64,000 nt of DNA from Bifidobacterium breve (GTDB taxonomy: Bacteria; Actinomycetota; Thermoleophilia; Solirubrobacterales; Solirubrobacteraceae), in assembly GCA_945889475.1 (NCBI GenBank), contig CAMDBT010000006.1, forward strand, positions 1-64,000, written 5' to 3'. Position numbers and translations under genes: made by a program. The notes beneath the pieces are model-generated. The model worked only from the letters and a program-made list of their open reading frames with translations, was not told the origin of the DNA and ran no database searches. Positions 17,255 to 24,078 of the stretch are shown piece after piece. Every line of letters begins with the position of its first letter. Positions within the stretch are counted from its first letter, which is position 1.

Positions 17255-18361
17255 GTGCAAACGCTCGTAATCTCCGACACCCACATCGGCTCGCGGCGCC
17301 CGGTCGACATCCTCCGTCGCCCCGAGCCGCTCGGCGCGCTCTGCGAAGCGTTGGCCGACATCGACAGGCTCGTCCTGCTCGGTGACGTGGTCGAGTTACG
17401 CCACGGCCGGCTCTATCACGCGCTCGGCGCGGCGCGGCCGATCATCGAAGCGATCGGCGCCGCGTTGCCTAAAGGCTCTGAGGTTGTGATCGTCGCCGGA
17501 AACCACGATTCGGCGCTCGTCGCGCCGTGGCTCTCGCGTCGCGCTGCACTCGAGGAGCCGCCGCCGCTAGGGCTTGAGACATTGACTACCGCCGACGCAT
17601 CGCCGGCCACCGAGGCAATCGCAGGCTGGCTTGGAAAGCGGGTCGACTGTTCGGTCGCTTACCCCGGGCTTTGGCTACGCGACGATCTCTGGGCGACGCA
17701 CGGCCACTACCTCGACCGGCTGATCACAATTCCAACCTTCGAGCGGATCGCGGCTGGGGCGATGGCGCGGATCGTCGGCAAGCTGCCAGACGCGCCGGGA
17801 AGCGCAATGGCGGAGGATTTTGAAGCCGCGCTGTCGCCCGTCTACGCTTGGCTTGAGCAGGTCGCCAATGGGCGCGCCGGCGGTGGCCGCTGGGCCACCA
17901 GCGCGGCAACGGCGAAGGTCTGGGCGCAGCTCTCGGGCGACGGCCGCGCGCCGCTGCGCGGCAAGGCGATGGCCGCGCTGCTGCCAGTTGGGATTGCCGC
18001 CATCAACCTTGCCGGCCTTGGGCCGGTCAGCTCAAAACTTTCGAGCGACGATCTACGGAGCGCCGGTCTCGACGCGATGGCGGGGGTCGTAGCGCTGCTT
18101 GGTGTCGAAGCGCAGTACGTGATCTTCGGCCACACCCACTGCGCCGGGCCTCTCCCGTGGATGGATCCAGCACAGTGGCGGCTGCCGAATGGAGGCCAGA
18201 TGATCAACAGCGGCTGCTGGACCGACGAGCCGCGGATCAACAGCACCGACCGGCGCAGCCCCTACCGACCTGGCCGGGGCGTGCTGGTGACCGACTCAGG
18301 GCCACCGCAGCAGCTGCTGATCGCCGACGAACTCGGCCAGCGACCGGCGAGCGGCTTCTAG
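17255..18361 (+). CDS. Metallophosphoesterase
   Basis: ISDTHIGSRRP, LLGDVVEL, VAGNHDSALV, FGHTHCAGPLPW. GTG start at 17255 preferred over the track start. Confidence 0.87.
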   Translation: MQTLVISDTHIGSRRPVDILRRPEPLGALCEALADIDRLVLLGDVVELRHGRLYHALGAARPIIEAIGAALPKGSEVVIVAGNHDSALVAPWLSRRAALEEPPPLGLETLTTADASPATEAIAGWLGKRVDCSVAYPGLWLRDDLWATHGHYLDRLITIPTFERIAAGAMARIVGKLPDAPGSAMAEDFEAALSPVYAWLEQVANGRAGGGRWATSAATAKVWAQLSGDGRAPLRGKAMAALLPVGIAAINLAGLGPVSSKLSSDDLRSAGLDAMAGVVALLGVEAQYVIFGHTHCAGPLPWMDPAQWRLPNGGQMINSGCWTDEPRINSTDRRSPYRPGRGVLVTDSGPPQQLLIADELGQRPASGF

Positions 18362-19134
18362 GCCGATCGCGCCGCGAGCCCGGCGCTAAAGCAGGTCGCG
18401 TGGACCGTCAGCGTTGGCTCGGCGCTCAGCTCAAGTACCCCGTCGCGGTGGCGGTTGTGGTCGATCAGTAGGTGCGCTCCGGCTGCGTCGATCTCACGCC
18501 GTTCACCGTTCACGGTCAAGTATCCGCGGCCCTCGGTGACGACCCAGACTTGGCCGGCGCCGTAGCTACCGCAGTAGGCACCGGGCTGATCGGCGGTCGG
18601 GACTACGAGTTCAGCGTCCATTCCGTCGCTTGGATCGAGCAGCTCGCCCAGCGGCTCGTTGATTCCAAGCAGCTCCTGAATTACCGCTTCGGTCTCCTGG
18701 TAGCCGCCTTCGCCGTAGTGAACGTCGGTCAGCATCAGGTCGGGGCCGAAGAGGTAGCGCGCAGGCCAGCCAGGGTTCTCGAAGGCGCGCCAGTATTCGA
18801 ACTGAGGGTCGAGCAAGACGGCCTGTTCAATCTTCAGCCGTTCAACGGCGGCTTCGACCAGCTCGCGCGCGTGGGAAGGCGGGAAGCCTGGGGCGTGGAC
18901 GGAGACGATTCTTAGCCCGGCCGGCTCGTAGCGCCTCTGCCATTGCCGCGTATAGCGCATCGCACGCAGCGAGCTGGGGCGGCAGAAGTCCCAGAACTCG
19001 ATCAGAACCGGCCGCGGCGCCTGCTGCTCGATCTTCAGCGTCGCAACGTTGATCCAGTCTCCATCCTTGGGGAACGACGGAGCGACGATGGTGTCGGTCT
19101 GCGGGCGCATGAGCTCGCTCGCTGACGCTAGCAT
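18358..19134 (-). CDS. Thioredoxin-fold (TlpA/DipZ C-terminal-like) protein with degenerate active site
   Basis: VLIEFWDFCRPSSLRAMRYTRQWQRRYEPAGLRIVSVHAP resembles a TlpA-like fold; only one Cys in the CxxC position. Confidence 0.7.
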   Translation of the reverse strand: MLASASELMRPQTDTIVAPSFPKDGDWINVATLKIEQQAPRPVLIEFWDFCRPSSLRAMRYTRQWQRRYEPAGLRIVSVHAPGFPPSHARELVEAAVERLKIEQAVLLDPQFEYWRAFENPGWPARYLFGPDLMLTDVHYGEGGYQETEAVIQELLGINEPLGELLDPSDGMDAELVVPTADQPGAYCGSYGAGQVWVVTEGRGYLTVNGERREIDAAGAHLLIDHNRHRDGVLELSAEPTLTVHATCFSAGLAARSA

Positions 19135-19168
19135 CGCCGAACAGAGTGCGTCGGCGAAACCAAAGTCA

Positions 19169-19714
19169 ATGCTGATCGGTAACCCACCCGTCGAGCTACC
19201 AGAGCCGCCGCTGACGAGTGGTTCGCTGGCGCTGCGCGAGTGGGCAGAGGGCGACGTTCGGACCCTCGTCGAGGGCTGCGGCGATCCGCTAACGGCGCGC
19301 TACACCTCGGTCCCGATTCCCTACACGCCGGAGGACGCGCGCCGCTTCATCAGCTTCGGCCGCTCACCGACGGCCTTGCCTCTGGCGGTCGTCAGCGGAG
19401 ATGATCTAGCGCAGGTGCTTGGAGGAGTCGGCCTGCACGCCGTTTCGTTGACCCGCCGGCGCGCTGAGATCGGTTACTGGACGGCGCCGTGGGCGCGCGG
19501 CGGGGGAGTAGCGCAGGAGGCTCTCGAGCTGCTCTCAACCTGGGCGCTCGGACCGCTCGGCCTGCAGCGGCTCGATCTCTACGCCGAACCGGAGAACGAC
19601 GGTTCACAGCGCGTCGCGGAGCGGGCCGGATACAAGCGCGGGGCGCTCGTCCGCTCTGGAATAGCGCTGCGCGGGCGCCGTTACGACGTGATCCGTTTCA
19701 CACTGCTGCGCTAG
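19169..19714 (+). CDS. GNAT family N-acetyltransferase (RimJ/RimL-like)
   Basis: LALREWAEGDVRTL... EIGYWTAPWARGGGVAQEAL... RLDLYAEPENDGSQRVAERAGYKRGALV. Confidence 0.88.
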   Translation: MLIGNPPVELPEPPLTSGSLALREWAEGDVRTLVEGCGDPLTARYTSVPIPYTPEDARRFISFGRSPTALPLAVVSGDDLAQVLGGVGLHAVSLTRRRAEIGYWTAPWARGGGVAQEALELLSTWALGPLGLQRLDLYAEPENDGSQRVAERAGYKRGALVRSGIALRGRRYDVIRFTLLR

Positions 19715-19804
19715 CGCCGCGCGAGCTGGCAATCGAACCGGCGCAACTTATTGCCGAGAACTGGTATCTATAGATAGACCAACCAGCAGAAAGCAGGAGG
19801 AGAG

Positions 19805-20638
19805 ATGAAAAAGTCACTACTGATCGCCGCAGTTACCGCGCTTGCGGTAACCGTGCCAGCCGCCTCGGCCTTTGCCACGCCGGCTGAGTTCCAGCGCTTC
19901 GACGCGTCTGTGGTCGGCAAGGCCGGCACCGATAAGAAGCCGAAGGCTGTGCGACTGAACATTCACCCGTTCCATGAGTACGGGGTCAAAGGTGGGCCAA
20001 CGAATACCGGCGGTCAGAACACTGGCGCCACGATGGAGGTTCCATTCTCAACCGTCTTCGCCAACGTCTTCACCGACAAGGCGATCAGTTACAACCTTGG
20101 ATCCTTCCCTTCCTGCAAGTTGCAGACGGCGCTTGATAATCCGGACGCATGTCCGGCAGGATCGCGCGTTGACGTCCCTTCGACCGCTAGCGGCCTGGTG
20201 CGAACCAAGGGTGCGCTGCCGGGGATCTACACGCTCGCCGTCGTGCTTGACATCAAGACCTTCATCTTGAGCAAGGATTCGCTTGCGCTGCGCATCGTGA
20301 CCCCGCTGACGACGGCGGTGATCATCGGCAAGATCGGCAAGGCGACCGGATCGGCAAAGACGAAGTACGGCCATCGGATCCGTTTCACAATCCCGGACGG
20401 GCTGATCGCGCCGACCGACGGCCTGGTCTCCCAGCTGGTTGATTTCAACTCCGGCATCAAGGCCGCCACGTCGAAGGGTAAGCCGCTGGTCGGTCTTGGC
20501 AAGTGCCCGAAGAGCAAGAAGCTCAACTTCGGCTACAACGGCGAGTACACGATCAACACGACCAAGAACCCAGATCAGAAGAGCTGGAAGATCGGTCAGA
20601 TTGGACCGCGGATCGACAAGTCGGTTCGTTGCAAGTAG
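19805..20638 (+). CDS. Secreted protein of unknown function, tandem paralog A
   Basis: Signal peptide MKKSLLIAAVTALAVTVPAASAFA; preceded by AGGAGGAGAG; strongly similar to the next ORF (HPFHEYG.KGGPTN.G.QN.GATMEVPFSTVF). Confidence 0.85.
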   Translation: MKKSLLIAAVTALAVTVPAASAFATPAEFQRFDASVVGKAGTDKKPKAVRLNIHPFHEYGVKGGPTNTGGQNTGATMEVPFSTVFANVFTDKAISYNLGSFPSCKLQTALDNPDACPAGSRVDVPSTASGLVRTKGALPGIYTLAVVLDIKTFILSKDSLALRIVTPLTTAVIIGKIGKATGSAKTKYGHRIRFTIPDGLIAPTDGLVSQLVDFNSGIKAATSKGKPLVGLGKCPKSKKLNFGYNGEYTINTTKNPDQKSWKIGQIGPRIDKSVRCK

Positions 20639-20681
20639 TCAGCTAGCGCCCTGAGGGCGCACGCGCACACTTGCTGCTGTT

Positions 20682-20709
20682 ACGGGGCGGGCCTGATGGC
20701 CCGCCCCGT
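20682..20709 (+). terminator. Hairpin downstream of paralog A
   Basis: ACGGGGCGGGCC-TGAT-GGCCCGCCCCGT, perfect 12-bp stem; no following T tract. Confidence 0.65.
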
Positions 20710-20811
20710 CTCGTTGCGGGCCGCACCCTCGCCGGCTGTAACCGGCGCGTCGGAGGGTCATAACGTGGTATTGATTCGGTCAGGTTTTCGATCAAACGGA
20801 GTAGGAGAGAG

Positions 20812-21672
20812 ATGAAGAAGCTAATTGTGCTCACTGTGGTTACGGCGCTGGCGGTAGTTCTGCCCGCCGGCTCGGCCTTGGCATCGCCGCAGCAGTTCCA
20901 GCGCTTCGCGGCCGGAGTAGTTGGCAAGGCTGGCACCAACAAGAAGCCAAGGGCTATTGCGCTCCATATTCACCCCTTCCACGAGTACGGGATCAAGGGC
21001 GGCCCAACCAATATCGGCAATCAGAACAGCGGCGCCACGATGGAGGTTCCATTCTCAACTGTCTTCTCCAACGTCTACCTCGACAAGGCGCTGGTTTTCA
21101 ACACCAACAGCTTCCCGGGCTGCGACCTGCAGACGATCCTTGATGATCCTGCGAGCTGCAACCCGGATTCACGGGTCGACATCCCTTCGACCGCCAGCGG
21201 CTTGGTGCGAACCAAGGGCGCCCTTCCGGGGATCTACACCCTGTTCACCACGCTTGACGTTAAGACGTTCGTGATGAACGCCCGCAGCAAGGGCGGAGCG
21301 AGGGTCAAGGACACGCTCGCGCTACGCGTCGTGACCCCGCTTACGACGGCAGTGATCGAAGGCAAGCTGATCAACGCGACCGGCTCGGCCAAGAAGTTCT
21401 ATGGCAAGGTGATGCGTTTCACGATTCCCGAAGGGCTGATCATGCCGACGCCGGGGCTCGTGTCGCAGCTGGTCGATTTCAACTCCGGGATCAAGTCCGC
21501 CTACCACAAGGGCAAGCCGGGGATCGGCCTGAAGGCCTGCCCGAAGAGCAAGAGGCTCCACTTCGGCTACAACGGCGAGTACACGATCAACACGACCAAG
21601 AAGGCAGATCAGAAGAGCTGGAAGATCGATCAGATTGGAAAGCGGATCGACAAGACGGTTCCCTGCAAGTAG
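20812..21672 (+). CDS. Secreted protein of unknown function, tandem paralog B
   Basis: Signal peptide MKKLIVLTVVTALAVVLPAGSALA; paralog of 19805-20638 along its length; ends YNGEYTINTTK..DQKSWKI.QIG.RIDK.V.CK. Confidence 0.85.
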   Translation: MKKLIVLTVVTALAVVLPAGSALASPQQFQRFAAGVVGKAGTNKKPRAIALHIHPFHEYGIKGGPTNIGNQNSGATMEVPFSTVFSNVYLDKALVFNTNSFPGCDLQTILDDPASCNPDSRVDIPSTASGLVRTKGALPGIYTLFTTLDVKTFVMNARSKGGARVKDTLALRVVTPLTTAVIEGKLINATGSAKKFYGKVMRFTIPEGLIMPTPGLVSQLVDFNSGIKSAYHKGKPGIGLKACPKSKRLHFGYNGEYTINTTKKADQKSWKIDQIGKRIDKTVPCK

Positions 21673-21708
21673 CTTCGGGGTCCCGCGCCTAGGCGCGGCA
21701 TTCGGCTG

Positions 21709-21736
21709 ACGGGGCGGGCCTTGGCGCTCGCCCCGT
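21709..21736 (+). terminator. Hairpin downstream of paralog B, similar to that after A
   Basis: ACGGGGCGGGC / GCTCGCCCCGT, 11-bp stem with one G-U pair. Confidence 0.55.
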
Positions 21737-21749
21737 ATCGTTGGGGGCG

Positions 21750-23168
21750 ATGGCGCACCTTCTCAAAGCGGGCCTGCCGGCCGCAGTCGCTTTGCTCGCA
21801 TTACCGGCAACCGCTTCGGCTCACGGTGTCGGCGAACGAGCCGATCTGCCGATCCCGCTCTGGCTGTTCGCCTGGGCAGCGGTGTTCGTGCTCGTCGCCT
21901 CGTTTGTGGCCTTCGCGGTACTTTGGCCCAAGCCGTCCTTGGCCAATCGAAGCTCGCGGCTGCTGGGGAGGGCGCCGCTGGCGCTGGAGGTCTTGGCTGG
22001 CGCGTTCGGCGTCTTCGGCTTCGCGTTGATCGTCTATGTCGGGCTGGAGGGCAGTCAGACGGCGACGGCGAACCTTGCGCCAACGGCGATCTTCGTCCTC
22101 GTCTGGGTTGGGATTCCGTTCGCTTCGGTCTTGTTCGGCGACCTCTTCGCAGTGATCAGCCCTTGGCGCGCAATCGGCCGCGCCGTCGGTTGGGCGGCGG
22201 CGCGCGTCGGCGGCGGACTGCCGGCCCCGATCGCATATCCCGATCGGCTTGGGCGCTGGCCGGCGGCGCTGATGATTCTCTGCTTTGCTTGGATTGAGCT
22301 GGCCTGGAGCGGCCGCGAGGAGCCAAACTCTTTGGCGATCGTCGCGCTGATCTACACCGCCGTGATGCTGATCGGGATGAGCTGCTTCGGCGCCGATAAG
22401 TGGTGCCGCAACGCCGACGGTTTCGGCGTCGCGTTCAGCCTCTTCGCGTTGCTCGCCCCGCTCGACTGGAAGGAGCGCCGCTGCCGGCTGCGTGCCCCGC
22501 TCGTCGGGGCACTACAGATGCCGCAGGTCGCTGGCTCGGTTGCAGTGGTCTGCGTGCTGATCGGGAGCACCAGCTTCGATGGCTTCTCGCAGGGCACCGT
22601 CTGGAACGGCGCCAGCGGCGTCGCGCAGCAGCTCAGCGACCTGCTGGTCGCGCTTGGTCTCAGTGCTGGGGCGGCGGTTGAGATCGCACACACGCTCGGG
22701 TTGCTGCTGATCGTCGCTGTAGTGGCTGCTCTCTACCGCCTCGCCGTCGTCGCAATGAGCCGCACCGGCGGCGGCAGGCCGCCGACCGCGGAGCTGGCTC
22801 GCAGCTTTGCCCACACGCTGATCCCGATCGCGCTCGCCTACGTCGTCGCGCATTACTTATCGCTGTTCGTGTTCCAAGGCCAAGCGACACTCTTCCTTAT
22901 CTCCGATCCGCTCGGTGACGGCTCCGACATCTTCGGTACTTCGCAGTCGGCGGTTGATTACTCGGTCTTGAGCGCGAATGCGATCTGGTACGCGCAGGTC
23001 GCTGCGCTCCTGGTCGGCCACGTCGCGGCGCTGGCGCTGGCGCATGACAAGGCGATGGCGACCTGGGCCAGCCAGCGCGTGGCGATCCGTTCGCAGTATT
23101 GGATGCTGCTCGTGATGGTGGCCTTCACCTGCATCGGCCTCTGGTTCCTCTCAGCGGGCGCCGCGTGA
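21750..23168 (+). CDS. Polytopic membrane protein of unknown function
   Basis: Many TM helices; N-terminal SAHGVGERADLPIPLWLFAWAAV. Related proteins may be labelled 'fenitrothion hydrolase' in databases, from memory and unverified. Confidence 0.8.
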   Translation: MAHLLKAGLPAAVALLALPATASAHGVGERADLPIPLWLFAWAAVFVLVASFVAFAVLWPKPSLANRSSRLLGRAPLALEVLAGAFGVFGFALIVYVGLEGSQTATANLAPTAIFVLVWVGIPFASVLFGDLFAVISPWRAIGRAVGWAAARVGGGLPAPIAYPDRLGRWPAALMILCFAWIELAWSGREEPNSLAIVALIYTAVMLIGMSCFGADKWCRNADGFGVAFSLFALLAPLDWKERRCRLRAPLVGALQMPQVAGSVAVVCVLIGSTSFDGFSQGTVWNGASGVAQQLSDLLVALGLSAGAAVEIAHTLGLLLIVAVVAALYRLAVVAMSRTGGGRPPTAELARSFAHTLIPIALAYVVAHYLSLFVFQGQATLFLISDPLGDGSDIFGTSQSAVDYSVLSANAIWYAQVAALLVGHVAALALAHDKAMATWASQRVAIRSQYWMLLVMVAFTCIGLWFLSAGAA

Positions 23169-23338
23169 GCTTCCCGCTCGCCCACGTAGCGCACTGGTAC
23201 CACGCGCTCTTGTACCTCGCGCCGATTCTGTTGATCGGCCTAGGGCTCTGGTGGAGCAGTCGGCGTGAGCGAGCGGCCGAGCGCGCGGCCGAGCGCGAGC
23301 GAGCGGCCGAGCAGCCGCCCCGAGAGTCTCGGCGCTAA
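23165..23338 (+). CDS. Small single-TM protein (57 aa)
   Basis: GTG start overlapping the previous stop (GTGA); VSFPLAHVAHWYHALLYLAPILLIGLGLWWSSRRERAAERAAERERAAEQ. Confidence 0.65.
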   Translation: MSFPLAHVAHWYHALLYLAPILLIGLGLWWSSRRERAAERAAERERAAEQPPRESRR

Positions 23339-23341
23339 GCC

Positions 23342-23968
23342 CTACTGAGCTGCGCTCTGGGAGGCCGCTTCGCGCTGCAGCGCCAGCACGTCGTGGGCGA
23401 TCGCCTCGGGCGTCAGTTCGCTTAGCGGGAACCCAATTCGCTGGCGACCGGCAGCGTCGAGCAGCACTACCGCGGCCGAGTGTTCGCGGTCCTTCTGCTG
23501 CGGTTGGACGCCAAATTCACGCCAGACGGGCTGCAGTTTCTGTTCGCTGCCGAGCAGAAACTGAAGACGGCCACCAAGCCTCTGCGCCGAGAGGAACCGT
23601 TGGGCGCTAGCAGCGGTGTCACCGGCGGGGTCGACGCTGATCGCGACAGCCGGGATCTCGCTGCCGATGCGGTCAAGCGCACCACGGATCTGCTGAGCAA
23701 TCGTCGGGCAGTCGTTCTGACAGGTCGAATAGATGAATGCCACGATCGCCGGTTGCCCGCGCAGTGCGGAGGCTCTAATCAGCTCGCCGTCTTGATTTTG
23801 CAGAGCGAACCGAACCGGCGGCGACTCAGGGCGGACCGCGCCGGCAAAGCGCGTCGCTGGCGCGCGCGAGCTGTTGGCGTTCGGGTCGCTCAGTAGCAGG
23901 AAGACGAGGATCCCGAGCAGCACGATCGTGGCACCGGCCATCAATGTCAGCCGCAGGCGAGGGTTCAT
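23342..23968 (-). CDS. SCO1/SenC family protein
   Basis: N-terminal TM; FIYSTCQNDCPTIAQQI (CxxxC copper site), VAISVDPAGDT. Confidence 0.9.
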   Translation of the reverse strand: MNPRLRLTLMAGATIVLLGILVFLLLSDPNANSSRAPATRFAGAVRPESPPVRFALQNQDGELIRASALRGQPAIVAFIYSTCQNDCPTIAQQIRGALDRIGSEIPAVAISVDPAGDTAASAQRFLSAQRLGGRLQFLLGSEQKLQPVWREFGVQPQQKDREHSAAVVLLDAAGRQRIGFPLSELTPEAIAHDVLALQREAASQSAAQ

Positions 23969-24078
23969 CGGCCACCAAGGGTACGTGGCAGCTCCCGTTG
24001 CAGGCCCCGTACCCTCACGAGCGGCGGCGCTATCCTTTCTGAAGTGCAGTCAATTCCAACAGTCCGGGCGGTGACGCT

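What the first reader, a model, noticed from the sequence alone, without database searches (positions are those of the whole stretch)
19805..21736. Tandem pair of secreted paralogs with matching downstream hairpins
Seen: two adjacent signal-peptide proteins align along their length (HPFHEYG.KGGPTN, ATMEVPFSTVF, VDxPSTASGLVRTKGALPGIYTL, SLVSQLVDFNSGIK-like, FGYNGEYTINTTK). Each is followed by an ACGGGGCGGGCC-type hairpin (20682-20709 and 21709-21736). Gene plus hairpin therefore look duplicated as one unit. I recognise no family. Paralog B has an extra insertion (NARSKGGARVK) and the two have different upstream regions, suggesting divergent regulation.
Basis: partly seen in the sequence, partly recalled or inferred. 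Interest (0 to 1): 0.6.

Follow-up and report, generated by a model that had tools for sequence, protein, structure and literature searches.

The report
Tandem secreted beta-sandwich proteins, hairpin terminators
Two neighbouring genes in a Solirubrobacterales (actinobacterial) genome encode sister secreted proteins of an undescribed, order-specific family, each closed by the same kind of RNA hairpin that also ends pilin genes in related bacteria, so they are probably stand-alone genes for surface or extracellular proteins rather than a new kind of system.

Summary
A (19805-20638, 277 aa) and B (20812-21672, 286 aa) are 70% identical, and each is followed by a GC-rich hairpin (20682-20709; 21709-21736).

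The proteins belong to a family with no Pfam, NCBIfam or PDB sequence match, found only inside the Solirubrobacterales (109/399 genomes of the class, 10/397 of the phylum). Members look exported, basic (pI about 9.8) and have four conserved cysteines. AlphaFold gives a confident all-beta model (pLDDT 87-89); fold matches are sub-threshold, many to adhesin, pilin and Ig-like domains. Members are often tandemly repeated at one conserved locus. The A/B pair is shared by four species and shows patchy gene conversion.

The hairpins are not dispersed repeats: these two are the only good copies in the genome. In relatives the hairpin follows most family genes, with compensatory stem changes, and most inspected copies elsewhere follow type IV pilin genes. 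I read it as a U-poor intrinsic terminator. Gene A has a bipartite promoter-like element found at most once per genome, always at this locus; B shares only its GGTAT box.

Best explanation: stand-alone, probably abundant exported structural or binding proteins. Expression and function are inferred, not shown.

The parts
19741..19767 (+). Bipartite promoter-like element GCGCAACTT-N13-GGTAT upstream of gene A
   Evidence: Conserved upstream of A orthologs and of lead genes in G001, G003, G008. Exact pattern in 8 of 25 genomes, once each, always at this locus and always with a 13-nt spacer although 9-18 was allowed. Promoter activity not tested.
19795..19804 (+). Shine-Dalgarno AGGAGGAGAG of gene A
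   Evidence: Direct reading; conserved in orthologs
19805..20638 (+). Gene A: exported basic beta-sandwich protein, 277 aa
   Evidence: purifying selection against orthologs, dN/dS about 0.2
19805..19876 (+). Probable signal peptide of A (about 24 residues)
   Evidence: n/h/c pattern by eye and near-invariant A22, A24; no confident fold for the same region in the model of B; no dedicated predictor available
20646..20660 (+). Small first hairpin GCGCCC-TGA-GGGCGC after the stop of A
   Evidence: Direct reading and folding
20682..20709 (+). Main hairpin of A, probable U-poor intrinsic terminator, followed by CTCGTT
   Evidence: covariation in 20 homologous hairpins; one of only two good copies in the genome
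20767..20771 (+). GGTAT box upstream of gene B, without the GCGCAACTT box
   Evidence: Alignment of B upstream regions
20803..20811 (+). Shine-Dalgarno AGGAGAGAG of gene B
   Evidence: Direct reading
20812..21672 (+). Gene B: paralog of A with a 9-residue insert, 286 aa
   Evidence: B orthologs form a 100/100 clade; AlphaFold pLDDT 86.9, pTM 0.83
21683..21698 (+). Small first hairpin CCGCGCC-TA-GGCGCGG after the stop of B
   Evidence: Direct reading and folding
21709..21736 (+). Main hairpin of B, probable terminator, followed by ATCGTT
21741..23168 (+). Conserved downstream neighbour: polytopic membrane protein without a known family (context, probably not part of the same transcript)
   Evidence: Same gene follows the family genes in many genomes; in 52 of 61 relatives; no Pfam or NCBIfam match

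Best explanation
Genes A and B are two members of an undescribed Solirubrobacterales-specific family of exported, cysteine-containing, basic beta-sandwich proteins. Each is a single-gene transcription unit: its own promoter and strong Shine-Dalgarno site in front, a U-poor GC-rich intrinsic terminator behind. The terminator insulates each copy from the next one and from the conserved membrane-protein gene downstream. The most likely role is as non-enzymatic structural or binding proteins on or outside the cell wall (coat, matrix or adhesin-like), made in quantity as pilins are. Copy number changes by tandem duplication and gene conversion. Shown by sequence: the pair, the family, its range, conservation, hairpin covariation and synteny. 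Predicted: the fold, export, terminator activity. Inferred: abundance and the structural or binding role.
For: Family of order-wide range with signal-peptide-like starts and four near-invariant Cys. Confident all-beta models; best fold matches of the second model are Sgo0707 adhesin (E 3e-3, prob 0.99-1.0, TMq 0.30-0.34), a CLIPPER fibrillar-adhesin domain (prob 1.0, TMt 0.54), SpaP/SspB and Clostridium pilin domains. Hairpin follows most family genes, covaries with G-U wobbles that pair only in the sense RNA; elsewhere it mostly follows type IV pilin genes. Tandem expansions and gene conversion. All tested members basic, pI 9.6-9.9. No conserved set of candidate catalytic residues.
Against: No expression or proteome data. 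Codon usage of A and B is ordinary (Nc 43-44, mid to high for the window), so high expression is not supported from that side. All fold matches are above E 1e-3 with TM below 0.4 to the query. The hairpin lacks a U-tract. There is no wall anchor, repeat or known wall-binding domain. Conserved synteny with SCO1 and a ResA-like protein could mean another role.
Confidence: 0.5

Rival explanations
1. The proteins are part of an extracytoplasmic copper or thiol-redox module: secreted partners of the adjacent membrane protein, the ResA/thioredoxin-like protein and SCO1, for example binding or delivering metal or serving as a disulfide substrate.
For: Locus order ResA-like, GNAT, family genes, membrane protein, SCO1 is kept across genera; SCO1-SenC and weak ResA matches. 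A and B have a histidine-rich stretch (IHPFHEYG) and conserved cysteines.
Against: The histidines are not kept in distant members. Each family gene ends in its own terminator-like hairpin before the membrane-protein gene, so they are probably not co-transcribed. The membrane protein is more widespread than the detected family (52/61 against 16/61 relatives in single-sequence searches), and in L110 and L112 the gene order differs.
Confidence: 0.2
2. The proteins are secreted enzymes or inhibitors with a new active site.
Against: Near-invariant positions are Cys, Gly, Pro and a few hydrophobic or Lys residues; no conserved set of candidate catalytic residues is seen across the 29 members.
Confidence: 0.1
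3. The hairpins act not as terminators but as mRNA 3'-end stabilisers or as binding sites for an RNA-binding protein that co-regulates surface-protein mRNAs.
For: The central stem sequence and the TCGTT tail are conserved beyond what pairing alone needs; the tail has few U; the hairpin is shared between two unrelated kinds of surface-protein gene. A second small hairpin precedes the main one.
Against: Position about 20-48 nt after the stop of single genes and U-poor hairpins of this type are known as terminators in mycobacteria (PMC12288462); a terminator can also stabilise the 3' end, so the two are not exclusive.
Confidence: 0.2

Closest known systems
I-shaped, U-poor intrinsic terminators of mycobacteria (PMC12288462)
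   Same: GC-rich stem-loop within about 50 nt of the stop codon, few or no U after it
   Different: Here the stem core and the TCGTT tail are also conserved in sequence over an order; termination itself not measured
Type IV major pilin genes of Solirubrobacterales
   Same: Same hairpin type directly after the gene, sometimes in tandem gene-plus-hairpin copies
   Different: The proteins are unrelated: A and B have a signal peptide and no N-methylation motif
Ig-like and adhesin beta-sandwich domains (Sgo0707, SpaP/SspB, CLIPPER domain, BslA)
   Same: All-beta sandwich of exported surface proteins; Foldseek probability up to 1.0
   Different: E above 1e-3, TM to the query 0.25-0.38, no sequence similarity, no wall anchor or repeats; kinship not established

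Membership tests
Any Pfam-A or NCBIfam family | Score above the curated cut-off | tested here: not met
   A and B and all members of two family alignments: only isolated weak matches of single members
Any protein with a solved structure | Significant sequence match in the PDB | tested here: not met
   phmmer and two profile searches, nothing significant
Surface adhesin / Ig-like beta-sandwich | Same fold at significant score | tested here: inconclusive
   Confident models, but best E 3e-3 and TM below 0.4 to the query
Surface adhesin / Ig-like beta-sandwich | Cell-surface location and binding activity | not testable with these tools
   Needs proteomics and binding assays
Exported protein | N-terminal signal peptide | tested here: inconclusive
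   Clear pattern by eye, conserved AxA site, disordered in models; no dedicated predictor on hand
Intrinsic terminator | Stable GC-rich RNA hairpin shortly after the gene on the coding strand | tested here: met
   covariation and sense-strand G-U pairs
Intrinsic terminator | U-tract directly after the stem | tested here: not met
   Tail is mostly NTCGTT; the standard terminator scan does not report these sites. U-poor terminators are known in mycobacteria
Intrinsic terminator | Transcript ends at the site | not testable with these tools
   Needs 3'-end mapping or in vitro transcription
Known Rfam RNA family | Match to a covariance model | tested here: not met
   No match up to E 1 in 18500-24000
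Dispersed genomic repeat | Many copies unlinked to one gene family | tested here: not met
   Two good copies in the genome, plus one partial pattern match on another contig

The most novel reading that the evidence does not exclude
An order-specific set of surface-protein genes marked at the 3' end: one conserved hairpin (GGCGGGCC-N4-GGYCCGCC, tail TCGTT), kept in sequence by an unknown RNA-binding or termination factor, ends the mRNAs of major pilins and of this new coat-like family, whose lead gene has its own once-per-genome promoter type.
Probability: 0.15. Interest if true: 0.6.

Novelty: new member of a known kind. Interest (0 to 1): 0.38.

Why it matters
It defines a protein family absent from the public family libraries searched, with a confident model, conserved cysteines and a fixed genomic address, in an actinobacterial order for which the matching named records found here are all metagenome-assembled. 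The hairpin shared with pilin genes is a sequence tag for finding other probably abundant surface proteins there, and a good substrate for testing how U-poor terminators work in GC-rich bacteria.

Tried and rejected
Dispersed-repeat origin of the hairpin: rejected. My first hairpin pattern had a wrong loop length and missed the real sites; redone. Phage or plasmid origin: no tblastn match in either collection and no significant viral fold match. High-expression codon bias: not seen; a ribosomal-protein reference set was not obtained because no L2 gene was found in this incomplete assembly. The long ORFs holding the domain in L104 and L101 are probably upstream over-extensions, not fusions (no Pfam domain, and the match begins inside the signal-peptide part of the profile). 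A viral-contig scan with the wide alignment could not run. Literature searches listed nothing on this family.

Full report
1. The observation. Two ORFs, A (19805-20638) and B (20812-21672), lie in tandem and encode proteins 70% identical over their length. The DNA repeat runs through both genes, in four blocks of 76-93% identity, and includes the hairpin (83%, 40 nt). Each gene also has a second, smaller hairpin between its stop codon and the main one (20646-20660; 21683-21698).

2. Protein family. A and B match nothing above cut-off in Pfam or NCBIfam and nothing significant in the PDB by sequence. Whole-genome searches found homologs in most species of the genus. With a 25-row profile, 109 of 399 genomes of the class matched, and every one is in the same order; in a phylum sample it was 10 of 397, again all in that order. 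Two of the named records carrying close relatives read Actinomycetota and Solirubrobacteraceae; a third bears a label that cannot be right. Members share a signal-peptide-like start, four near-invariant cysteines (C104, C116, C243, C285 in B) and, in most, a CPxGSxVGxGxA-type motif; the mature chain is basic, pI 9.6-9.9 in the seven tested. AlphaFold models of B and of a divergent short member are confident and all-beta. Foldseek finds no match below E 1e-3. Many of the best matches of the second model are adhesin, pilin and integrin-type domains of surface proteins, though p53-family domains and others appear too. I therefore call it a beta-sandwich of uncertain kinship.

3. Evolution of the pair. 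Orthologs of both A and B lie side by side in G006, G009 and G012. All B proteins carry the 9-residue insert and form a clade with 100/100 support. The duplication is thus older than these species. Within species, stretches are homogenised: in G006, A and B are 100% identical in DNA over codons 31-60 and 241-270 of the alignment, while A of G006 is only 77-78% identical to A of other species over codons 31-60, and A and B of G006 differ by 37% over codons 91-120. That is the signature of patchy gene conversion. In the window itself the last 135 nt of A and B are 93% identical, but orthologs are also well conserved there, so conversion is less certain. Separate tandem expansions exist in G007, G002, G026, G278 and G342. 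dN/dS of 0.08-0.23 between orthologs shows purifying selection.

4. The hairpin. Downstream of family genes across the order there is usually a strong hairpin about 20-48 nt after the stop codon. With a crude gene call, 20 of 26 family genes have one against 6 of 328 other ORFs; some of those six are family hairpins reached from another ORF, or a pilin hairpin. The gene call is rough, so this is an indication rather than a statistic. In 20 aligned hairpins 96% of cells pair, four pairs change on both sides, and the covariation score is 0.229 against 0.106 in shuffles and at most 0.075 when slid. Wobble cells are mainly of the type that pairs as G-U in the sense RNA and would be A-C in the antisense RNA, which points to a structure in the coding-strand RNA. 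The central stem and the TCGTT that follows are almost invariant. These 20 sequences were picked because they form the hairpin, so the percentage paired leans upward; the compensatory changes do not depend on that.

5. Where else it occurs. In this genome the searches give only these two good sites, plus one partial pattern match on another contig. A covariance model run on 41 genomes puts family loci at the top. Of 22 other sites inspected, at least 12 lie directly after type IV pilin genes (FTLIELLVVILIIGILAAIA and similar; N_methyl confirmed for two), others after exported proteins or lipoproteins and one after a probable inositol-phosphate synthase. Three exact pattern matches outside the family also follow pilin genes. 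This argues for a strong terminator used at single-gene units of abundant, mostly surface, proteins. U-poor terminators close to the stop codon are described for mycobacteria (PMC12288462).

6. Upstream. Gene A has GCGCAACTT-N13-GGTAT about 40 nt before the start, and a strong Shine-Dalgarno. The exact two-box pattern occurs in eight of 25 genomes, once each, always at this locus and always with a 13-nt spacer although 9-18 was allowed. B keeps only ACGTGGTA(T/C). I could not assign a sigma factor. Divergent regulation of A and B is plausible but unproven.

7. Neighbourhood. The locus order is kept across genera: CaiB-like, calcineurin-like, ResA/thioredoxin-like, GNAT, one to several family genes, a membrane protein without a family, SCO1, rhodanese/ThiF, cysteine-synthase-like. 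The membrane protein is found in 52 of 61 relatives. This synteny is the main support for the rival copper/redox reading.

8. Verdict. Real, conserved and correctly described. The protein family is new to the libraries searched but of a familiar sort (exported, lineage-specific beta-sandwich proteins), and the hairpin is best read as a terminator. Function and abundance remain inferred: codon usage is ordinary and there are no expression data.

Noticed in passing
21741-23168: Polytopic membrane protein with no Pfam or NCBIfam match, present in 52 of 61 relatives and fixed next to SCO1 and the family genes; its real start may be ATG at 21750.
   Followed up: partly
L028:4545-5000 (G006): In G006 only a 44-residue piece of that membrane protein remains between gene B and SCO1, which suggests an internal deletion.
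   Followed up: no
L025 (CAMCVN010000003.1): Record titled Bifidobacterium breve carries the same locus with 83% identity and the same gene order as this Solirubrobacterales genome; the species label is almost certainly wrong.
   Followed up: no
18358-19134 and 19049-19714: The ResA-like gene (minus strand) and the GNAT gene (plus strand) overlap at their 5' ends as called; the GNAT start is probably internal.
   Followed up: no
L164:2005-3346 (G052:C47): Three near-identical type IV pilin genes in tandem, each followed by its own copy of the same hairpin: the gene-plus-terminator arrangement of the finding in an unrelated protein family.
   Followed up: partly
19741-19767 and counterparts in L172-L179: GCGCAACTT-N13-GGTAT with a fixed spacer, at most once per genome, no sigma factor assigned.
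   Followed up: partly
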